Below are positions 24,631 to 25,881 of a stretch of DNA of 33,023 nucleotides, piece by piece (within the stretch, counting starts at the first letter, position 1; the number at the start of each line of letters is the position of its first letter). The DNA comes from an uncultured Ruminococcus sp. (GTDB lineage: Bacteria; Bacillota; Clostridia; Oscillospirales; Ruminococcaceae). Location of the stretch: NCBI GenBank assembly GCA_902781565.1, contig CACZJT010000013.1:1-33023 (forward strand). The letters are read 5' to 3'. The position numbers and the translations under genes were made by a program. The notes under the pieces are model-generated. The model saw only the letters and a list, made by a program, of their open reading frames with translations, had not been told where the DNA came from and did no database searches.

Positions 24631-25881
24631 TCAGAATTCAAGAGTTACAACGGGACGGACACCATACAGTTTTGTGGCAAATTCGCCGGCCGGATAGATA
24701 TAGCCATCAGATTGAGTGATCGCTGCAAAATCATTCTTACTAACACCCGGCGACCTCAGCCACCAATGATTGCTACATTTTTTAATATCGAAATCGATTT
24801 TTTTTGCCTCACTTATATCCGGCAAGTAGACGTAATCATCGGTATCATTTCCGCCGATACCCGCCTCATTATTCGGAGTGCTGTTATGTTTTCTTGCGAT
24901 CAGATCTTTATCTTCATCACTGAAAGTATTGTAAAAATCGCTGTTCAGGTATCTTCTCAATGTGCAGGTTTCCCATGTTACTTTTGTTTCGCTATCGTTA
25001 TACTTTTTCGTTGTAAGCAAATTTTTCATCAGAAGTGTGACAGTGTTATCGCTCTTGCCGATGATATACCACTGATAATTTCCGAAATTTACCTCATCGC
25101 CGACATTATTAGCTGTATAGGGATTGGCTGGCGTTTCCTTCACTGCAACAGAGAACGTCAGCGCTTCGGTGTGTTTGCCCGCGACAGTGGGTGCGCTGTT
25201 CTCGGTCGTAACGAGGGTAAGCTCGACTTTGTCCGGTTCCGTAAATTTCCCGACCGTATCGCCGACATTAAGGGCGGTATTGCCGTTCTTGATGTTGTAT
25301 TTCACCTCGGAAGTGCCGTTCTTTGCGGTGAACACATCGCCGCTTGTCGTGTTGCTGCCATTATCCAGCTTTACGACTATCTTCTTCCCCATCATATACT
25401 TCATCTCGGTGACTTCGATATCCGTGGTCTGCTTGGTCTGCGCCGCTTCGTCATTTATAACGGCGGTCGAGGGGATAGTCACTATGTACGAGGGAGTAAC
25501 ATCGTAGGTGACGGTCATGTCGCCCGAAACACCCATTTGCGAATCTTTAAATGTTATCTCATACTCGCCGCTTTCATTTACTCTTGCTTTCAAGACTAAA
25601 TCCAGGGTGTTTTCCTTGTTAATATTGTAGTCCTTGAGTGTCCTGTTATCTTCAAGCTGTTTTCCCTCAAAGATAAGCCTTTGCATATCGGGAGGAATAC
25701 CCTCCTTGTCCTGTATCTTCGCCTTGACGTCCTCGATAGTGTCACTCGGCTCAACGTCAAGTGTTATCGTTTTTCCGGTCAGCGTTTCAACAAAGACCTG
25801 CATAGCATCAGCCGACAGCGCAGTGACCGCCGAAAGCATAGTGAGAGCCGTAACAGCCGATATTATCCTTTTGGCTTTCAT
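24631..25881 (-). CDS. secreted ubiquitin-domain protein with DUF6273-like C-terminus
   Basis: 416 aa, ATG 25881 after AAAGGAGGA. Residues 1-26 are a signal peptide with an AxA site (Ala24-Asp-Ala26). Residues 27-100 align without gaps to human ubiquitin 1-74 and agree at 61 positions. Kept: Lys11, 27, 29, 33, 48, 63 (protein K37, K53, K55, K59, K74, K89) and Leu8, Ile44, Val70. Changed: Lys6 to Glu, and the Gly75-Gly76 end is Val-Asn. Residues ~105-250 are a beta-rich domain ('VTYDVTPSYIVTIPSTAVI', 'FTAKNGTSEVKYNIKNG') of a kind seen in clostridial surface proteins. Residues ~258-416 look like DUF6273 ('WETCTLRRYLNSDFYNTFS', 'WWLRSPGVS', 'GVRPVVTLEF'). Without Gly-Gly it cannot be conjugated through its own tail. 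Function unknown; binding of host ubiquitin partners is one possibility. Confidence 0.93.
   Translation of the reverse strand: MKAKRIISAVTALTMLSAVTALSADAMQVFVETLTGKTITLDVEPSDTIEDVKAKIQDKEGIPPDMQRLIFEGKQLEDNRTLKDYNINKENTLDLVLKARVNESGEYEITFKDSQMGVSGDMTVTYDVTPSYIVTIPSTAVINDEAAQTKQTTDIEVTEMKYMMGKKIVVKLDNGSNTTSGDVFTAKNGTSEVKYNIKNGNTALNVGDTVGKFTEPDKVELTLVTTENSAPTVAGKHTEALTFSVAVKETPANPYTANNVGDEVNFGNYQWYIIGKSDNTVTLLMKNLLTTKKYNDSETKVTWETCTLRRYLNSDFYNTFSDEDKDLIARKHNSTPNNEAGIGGNDTDDYVYLPDISEAKKIDFDIKKCSNHWWLRSPGVSKNDFAAITQSDGYIYPAGEFATKLYGVRPVVTLEF

What the first reader, a model, noticed from the sequence alone, without database searches (positions are those of the whole stretch)
24631..25881. Secreted bacterial protein with a near-eukaryotic ubiquitin domain
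Residues 27-100 align gap-free with human ubiquitin 1-74 and agree at 61 positions by my own count, far above the level of ordinary bacterial ubiquitin-like folds (ThiS, MoaD). The gene is bacterial in all other ways: own promoter, Shine-Dalgarno site, signal peptide, terminator, and clostridial-type C-terminal domains. A secreted ubiquitin is known in Bacteroides fragilis (BfUbb), but fusion to a beta-rich surface domain and a DUF6273-like module in a Clostridia-type genome would be a different architecture. A gut or rumen bacterium could have taken it from a host or protist.
Basis: partly seen in the sequence, partly recalled or inferred. Interest (0 to 1): 0.93.

Follow-up and report, generated by a model that had tools for sequence, protein, structure and literature searches.

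The report
Bacterial surface protein wearing eukaryotic ubiquitin
A relative of the rumen bacterium Ruminococcus carries a gene whose product is predicted to be secreted and holds, near its front end, an almost intact copy of ubiquitin, the tagging protein of animals, plants and fungi; bacteria of many phyla carry similar genes joined to quite different predicted surface anchors, so bacteria likely display captured ubiquitin outside the cell, for a purpose still untested.

Summary
Confirmed. The minus-strand ORF 25881..24631 (416 aa) has a signal-peptide-like start followed directly by ubiquitin (Ub): 61 of 74 residues match human Ub, Pfam 97.6 bits, predicted fold within 0.5 A of solved Ub. 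Gly75-Gly76 are missing, so ordinary conjugation is excluded. Behind it lie a domain with a pilin-like predicted fold and a DUF6273 (C-type-lectin-like) domain. It is not contamination: a homologue sits on the closed plasmid of isolate Ruminococcus albus 7, among pilin-like genes and a gene with a sortase-type tail. Nor is it alone: signal peptide + Ub heads occur, patchily, in isolates and MAGs of many phyla, joined to autotransporter barrels, S-layer domains, IPTL-CTERM, type IX tails or dockerin, and in the smallest versions to an anchor only. Ub is under strong purifying selection. Bacterial Ubs do not form one clade against eukaryotic ones (AU p 0.008), so several captures are likely. Best reading: a displayed, conjugation-dead Ub head that is cargo, not helper; its partner is unknown, and the Ile44 patch is not specially conserved. 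Closest known: BfUbb of Bacteroides fragilis, which is free, not anchored. My literature searches found no anchored bacterial ubiquitin.

The parts
24631..25881 (-). whole gene: Ub - pilin-like - DUF6273 protein, 416 aa
25804..25881 (-). signal-peptide-like segment, residues 1-26 (MKAKR..., ends A-D-A), predicted cleavage directly before Ub Met1
   Evidence: one search rule (hydrophobic run, small residues at -3 and -1); not run through a signal-peptide predictor
25582..25803 (-). ubiquitin domain, residues 27-100; ends LVLKAR, Gly75-Gly76 replaced by V-N
25489..25581 (-). linker plus N-terminal extension, residues 101-131, with alternating hydrophobic residues (donor-strand-like, inferred)
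   Evidence: pLDDT under 50 at 112-127; pattern V-x-Y-x-V in relatives
25096..25488 (-). pilin-like beta domain, about residues 132-262
24634..25095 (-). DUF6273 domain (Pfam stretch 281-415), C-type-lectin-like by literature
25890..25895 (-). Shine-Dalgarno AGGAGG
   Evidence: sequence
25928..25956 (-). promoter-like site TTGACA-17-TATTAT
   Evidence: consensus match only
24579..24604 (-). terminator-like stem-loop
   Evidence: consensus match only

Best explanation
The gene encodes a ubiquitin domain, lacking the Gly-Gly needed for conjugation, that is predicted to be exported and shown at the outer end of a cell-surface protein, where it likely acts as a ready-made ubiquitin ligand aimed at neighbouring cells, most likely microbial eukaryotes. 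Shown: the Ub sequence, its place directly after a signal-peptide-like segment, the loss of Gly-Gly, the DUF6273 match, the same head joined to many unrelated anchor domains in other bacteria, and purifying selection on the Ub. Predicted: export, cleavage before Met1, and the folds, pilin-like fold included. In Ruminococcus the head sits on a pilin-fold subunit, so it would be carried by a fibre or a wall-anchored stalk, much as a tip adhesin carries its lectin head. Inferred and untested: that Ub is a ligand, that its partner is eukaryotic, and that the gene was taken from a gut or rumen eukaryote.
For: (1) Ub is the constant part and the rest is exchangeable. Of 62 signal-peptide-Ub proteins scanned (of 79 found), 11 match an autotransporter barrel, 7 DUF6273, 5 SLH, 2 the type IX tail, 1 IPTL-CTERM (25 of 37 families shown); further tails. 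(2) The smallest versions are signal peptide + Ub + anchor only (L162: Ub then IPTL-CTERM, its start codon not settled; L056, L058, L091: 33-37 aa of hydrophobic tail ending in basic residues) or signal peptide + Ub alone (8 of 79), so Ub looks like cargo, not a helper. (3) In the proteins scanned one by one the anchor domains are C-terminal and Ub N-terminal, so Ub should face outward. (4) Strong constraint: Ub dN/dS is lower than that of the passenger in 8 of 8 pairs with passengers at least 49% identical and Ub dS at least 0.1 (thresholds set after seeing the list). (5) R. albus 7 plasmid: Ub-pilin between pilin-like genes and a gene with an NPxTG-type tail; six of six other Ub-pilin loci looked at have a pilin-like gene or the shared membrane-protein gene beside them. 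(6) Several captures: AU test against one bacterial clade p 0.008.
Against: The Ile44 patch, the usual contact surface, is no better kept than other non-core positions (0.80 against 0.80, p 0.52, 24 motif-unbiased sequences), and only 13 of 24 keep L8/I44/V70 together: this fits selection for fold as well as for binding. The window protein has H68D, K6E, Q40M and A46E on or near surfaces used by human Ub (recalled). No partner is known. The window gene itself lies alone, not in a pilin cluster, and no anchor was recognised in it. The family is patchy (4 of 13 genomes of the genus), so it is dispensable.
Confidence: 0.4

Rival explanations
1. Structural cap. Ub is kept as a very stable, protease-resistant, fast-folding N-terminal plug that protects surface proteins in proteolytic settings; it binds nothing.
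For: Core better kept (0.89) than the other positions (0.80), Ile44 patch not special, Gly-Gly kept in only 3 of 79. The extreme stability of Ub is recalled knowledge.
Against: Minimal proteins with Ub plus an anchor, or Ub alone, have nothing to protect. The same kind of passenger is common without Ub: 2 of 120 listed relatives carry PF00240, one of them the query itself. Lysines are kept more than other non-core positions (0.917 against 0.80, p 0.02).
Confidence: 0.3
2. Antibacterial weapon like BfUbb: the Ub head is a toxin against competing bacteria, here tethered to the cell surface for contact killing.
For: BfUbb, a signal-peptide Ub without the terminal Gly, inhibits some B. fragilis strains (PMC5705921: abstract, Discussion and one Results section seen). 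Pedobacter cryoconitis has four tandem stand-alone copies.
Against: Bovine Ub, identical to human, had no activity in that assay, and the median bacterial head here keeps 65 of 72 human residues. Anchored forms seem less suited to enter a target (inference). No immunity gene was looked for.
Confidence: 0.17
3. Artefact: chimeric contig or eukaryotic contamination in a MAG.
For: The window lies in a fragmented assembly (236 contigs, 87.7% complete); the gene has lower GC3 (0.535) than 10 other window genes measured (0.63-0.78).
Against: The ORF joins Ub in frame to a bacterial-type signal peptide, pilin-like and DUF6273 parts; P0130 has the same order; a homologue lies on the closed plasmid of R. 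albus 7 and others in isolates such as R. albus KH2T6, R. albus 8, Cohnella, Saccharibacillus, Dyella.
Confidence: 0.01

Closest known systems
BfUbb of Bacteroides fragilis (PMC3352274, passages seen; PMC5705921, abstract and two sections seen)
   Same: Eukaryotic-like Ub directly behind a signal peptide, mature start at Met1, no terminal Gly-Gly, horizontal origin proposed
   Different: BfUbb is a free 76-aa secreted protein; here Ub heads a larger protein with pilin-like and lectin-like parts, and relatives bear many surface anchors. BfUbb is antibacterial; activity here is untested.
Chaperone-usher pilus tip adhesins (FimH, CsuE)
   Same: N-terminal binding head followed by a pilin-fold domain (structural match of the pilin part; layout of FimH recalled)
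   Different: The head is Ub, a C-terminal DUF6273 follows, the relatives are Gram-positive-type bacteria, no usher or chaperone was identified, and an N-terminal extension is retained
DUF6273 / C-type-lectin-like proteins of gut Bacillota and phages (PMC10743442, PMC12402451, passages seen)
   Same: DUF6273 present, with a solved-structure match
   Different: Those passages describe no Ub; no reverse transcriptase that could diversify it was found in the held genome
Secreted ubiquitins of plant-parasitic nematodes (as described in the Discussion of PMC5705921)
   Same: Signal peptide plus Ub plus C-terminal extension, acts outside the producer
   Different: Eukaryotic, with an extension that is cleaved off; here a fusion without the Gly-Gly cleavage site, in bacteria

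Membership tests
Ubiquitin (PF00240) | Sequence over the family cut-off and beta-grasp fold | tested here: met
Ubiquitin as a conjugated modifier | C-terminal Arg-Gly-Gly, free or exposed by cleavage | tested here: not met
   Ends ...LVLKAR-VNESG; 3 of 79 signal-peptide-Ub proteins keep GG at 75-76
BfUbb-type secreted ubiquitin | Signal peptide ending directly before Ub Met1, no Gly-Gly | tested here: met
   (rule-based, no predictor)
BfUbb-type secreted ubiquitin | Mature protein is Ub alone | tested here: not met
   316 residues follow
BfUbb-type secreted ubiquitin | Inhibits bacteria of the same species | not testable with these tools
   needs purified protein
Bacterial Ub-like conjugation operons (Bil type, recalled) | E1, E2 or JAB-type gene beside the Ub-like gene | tested here: not met
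   19 other window ORFs scanned with Pfam (3, 6, 10) show none; the two direct neighbours are a sugar-binding-type protein and TraB/GumN. Not every window ORF was scanned.
Chaperone-usher pilins | Ig-like pilin fold | tested here: met
Chaperone-usher pilins | Missing strand completed by a donor strand in an N-terminal extension | tested here: inconclusive
   Alternating hydrophobic V-x-Y-x-V before strand A; the groove was not inspected and no complex was modelled
Chaperone-usher pilins | Dedicated chaperone and outer-membrane usher genes | not tested
   No search for them was made; a membrane-anchored protein that matches no family above chance opens the Ruminococcus clusters
DUF6273 | Over the Pfam cut-off | tested here: met
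   69.7 bits, cut-off 23.5

The most novel reading that the evidence does not exclude
Displaying a conjugation-dead eukaryotic ubiquitin on the outside of the cell is a general bacterial strategy, invented many times by capture of polyubiquitin repeats from microbial eukaryotes and fitted to every kind of surface anchor, including a pilus-like fibre in Ruminococcus whose tip head is ubiquitin; it works as molecular mimicry towards protist grazers, fungi or animal hosts.
Probability: 0.33. Interest if true: 0.94.

Novelty: new variant of a known kind. Interest (0 to 1): 0.83.

Why it matters
Ubiquitin is treated as a hallmark of eukaryotes, and the reported bacterial copy (BfUbb) as a curiosity of one species. 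The calls here show it as a recurrent head of predicted surface proteins across bacterial phyla, kept under strong selection, mostly without the residues needed for conjugation. That opens testable questions: what outside a bacterium recognises ubiquitin, who the donors were, and whether Ruminococcus builds a pilus-like fibre with a ubiquitin head. It also warns that anti-ubiquitin antibodies and ubiquitin proteomics of gut, rumen or freshwater samples may pick up bacterial protein.

Tried and rejected
Contamination or chimera: rejected by the closed R. albus 7 plasmid. Single bacterial origin of the ubiquitins: rejected by the AU test (p 0.008), with the caution that 72 columns resolve little, no branch was starred, and the 28 eukaryotic rows were picked mainly as nearest to the bacterial ones. 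A first tree held many divergent eukaryotic repeats with long branches and was not used for the test. Naming the donor: not possible; closest are P0243, P0245, P0278, whose sources give no organism. Phage vehicle: no match of the Ub domain in 50,697 phage records; 8 IMG/VR loci, some with signal-peptide Ub, some with eukaryote-type polyubiquitin, their contigs not studied. Plasmids: 3 records, of which R. albus 7 is the strong one, the two Pseudoalteromonas records 36-39% identical. Diversity-generating retroelement acting on DUF6273: no reverse transcriptase match in the held genome, which is 87.7% complete. Syntenic insertion site: the TraB homologue lies on another contig than the Ub gene in G386, G035 and G353, so no empty-site comparison was made. 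The first conservation count is biased, because the word scan drew on the peptide words KAKIQDKE and KDYNINKE; the motif-unbiased set of 24 was used instead. From the loci that set leaves out L006 (cut), L016 and L017 (shifted or weak) and the duplicate L143; the weak loci L099-L101, L136, L141, L142 gave no usable domain; it includes L011 and L015, which lack the direct signal-peptide layout. Surface-patch residue lists are recalled. The protein search with residues 1-100 listed polyubiquitin-type proteins in its best 120 and gave no list of bacterial forms. L097 falls in the short size class but has no anchor-like tail. Literature: the searches (listings) showed BfUbb papers but none on anchored or fused bacterial ubiquitin; on R. 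albus secretome and donor-strand pili gave nothing on it either; a review I recalled was not held. Non-cleavable Ub fusions as degradation signals inside a eukaryotic cell: recalled knowledge, not pursued.

Full report

NOT AN ARTEFACT. Ruminococcus albus 7 = DSM 20455, plasmid pRUMAL01 (complete, circular), holds a 246-aa 'ubiquitin family protein' 52% identical over window residues 1-248. It sits in a same-strand run of genes: a membrane-anchored protein, several signal-peptide pilin-like proteins, the Ub-pilin, another pilin-like protein, and a protein whose NPATG tail resembles NCBIfam Rumino_NPXTG (E 0.0009, below its cut-off), then a dockerin gene. Similar surroundings, in part cut by contig ends, are seen in L018, L020 (R. 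albus KH2T6), L021, L156 and L157. The window's own genome has such a cluster, without Ub, on contig C121 (L152); there the Ub gene stands apart.

WIDESPREAD BUT PATCHY. With the Pfam model, genomes with a match are 4 of 13 in the genus, 17 of 396 in the family, 5 of 394 in the order, 7 of 391 in the class (5 over cut-off), 5 of 398 in the phylum (4 over cut-off), the window's genome included each time; 0 of 14 control genomes match. A word-based scan of GTDB species genomes gave 159 coding stretches, best 80 kept. One search found 103 Ub ORFs in 97 loci; without 5 duplicate loci 98 remain, of which 79 have a signal-peptide-like segment directly before Ub by my rule, and 7 keep GG. Within the 79, Met1 is kept in 78 and GG in 3. 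Carriers include isolates of Ruminococcus, Cohnella, Saccharibacillus, Dyella, Methylolobus, Pedobacter and Flavobacterium and MAGs labelled as Akkermansiaceae, Chlorobiaceae, a cyanobacterium and others (record titles).

ONE HEAD, MANY ANCHORS. Of 62 of these proteins scanned (17 of the 79 left out: near-duplicates, short stand-alone ones, a cut one, a very long one), 11 match the autotransporter barrel, 7 DUF6273, 6 GLUG, 5 SLH, 2 the type IX tail, 1 IPTL-CTERM; one has dockerin. The smallest are informative: Ub followed only by an IPTL-CTERM (L162), by a 33-37-residue hydrophobic tail (L056, L058, L091), or by nothing (8 of 79). So Ub looks like the cargo and the rest a means of display.

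SELECTION. Synonymous sites are saturated in most comparisons (median pS 0.89, median pN 0.12, 2926 pairs). In 24 independent closer pairs Ub dN/dS is 0.04-0.24 in 20; of the other four, two have no amino-acid change, one is 0.27, and one is 0.56 resting on a dS of 0.02. Where passengers are at least 49% identical and Ub dS at least 0.1, Ub is the slower part in 8 of 8 (thresholds set afterwards); the pair L053/L070 goes the other way at dS 0.02; passengers below 35% identity are hardly alignable and were not counted. In the 24 motif-unbiased sequences, core positions keep 0.89 identity to human Ub, other positions 0.80, the Ile44 patch 0.80 (p 0.52), the lysines 0.917 (p 0.02; one of five patches tested). 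This does not favour the classical Ile44 surface; it fits fold stability or a contact elsewhere.

ORIGIN. Of 87 bacterial Ub domains, 36 are closer to a eukaryotic-type repeat in hand, 35 to another bacterial one, 16 tie. On the tree they are intermixed; holding the 81 bacterial rows together costs 72.5 log units, p-AU 0.008. The window's nearest are polyubiquitins carrying D16, N53 and A57 (62 of 72 identical; an equal 62 for bacterial L025), a combination also seen in L002, L004, L007, L008, L132 and P0130. Several captures from eukaryotes, or repeated exchange, is the likely history.

HOW IT LIKELY WORKS. Predicted export places Ub, with its native N-terminus, at the outward end of an anchored or fibre-borne protein. 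It cannot be activated by E1 for want of Gly-Gly (established knowledge). I take it to be a ligand for something that recognises ubiquitin outside the bacterium, most likely on or in a microbial eukaryote; this last step is inference, at about 0.4. A stability cap is the main rival. Killing of bacteria in the way of BfUbb is less likely, because bovine Ub was inactive there (section seen).

KNOWN OR NEW. Secreted bacterial ubiquitin is known from B. fragilis. Fusion to surface anchors, the pilin-like setting and the spread over phyla came up in none of my literature searches, though genome annotation already names at least one of these genes a ubiquitin family protein.

Noticed in passing
window 27144-27272, minus strand: The stretch before the TraB/GumN gene translates to a peptide that recurs dozens of times across the window's genome and G035, mostly at 55-97% identity: a dispersed repeat, so the GTG start of the listed ORF is probably wrong.
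   Followed up: no
L057, L076, L081, L086, L087, L094: Contigs of mostly actinobacterial MAGs hold Ub-like ORFs, in four of the six loci two of them in tandem, without a recognised signal peptide and with a shared tail like G-V-V-T-Y-Q.
   Followed up: no
L075:5995-7394: Pedobacter cryoconitis has four tandem stand-alone signal-peptide-Ub genes ending at or just after LR, a possible BfUbb-like array.
   Followed up: no
L060:5905-6228 and L158: Dyella sp. OK004 and an IMG/VR contig encode signal peptide + Ub ending in an intact RLRGG before the stop, that is a predicted exported ubiquitin with its conjugation tail.
   Followed up: partly
L159, L161: IMG/VR contigs with polyubiquitin whose first repeat is near-canonical and later repeats diverged, joined by Gly-rich linkers.
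   Followed up: no
L150:3931-5139: The R. albus 7 pilin cluster contains a gene annotated as phosphatidylinositol-specific phospholipase C.
   Followed up: no
alignment A1: Among the 62 scanned proteins one matches a cyclophilin-like domain and one an EndoS-type LRR.
   Followed up: no
G000 contig C121 (L152:1597-5744): The window's genome has a pilin-like gene cluster with an NPxTG-type anchor gene but no Ub member on that contig.
   Followed up: partly
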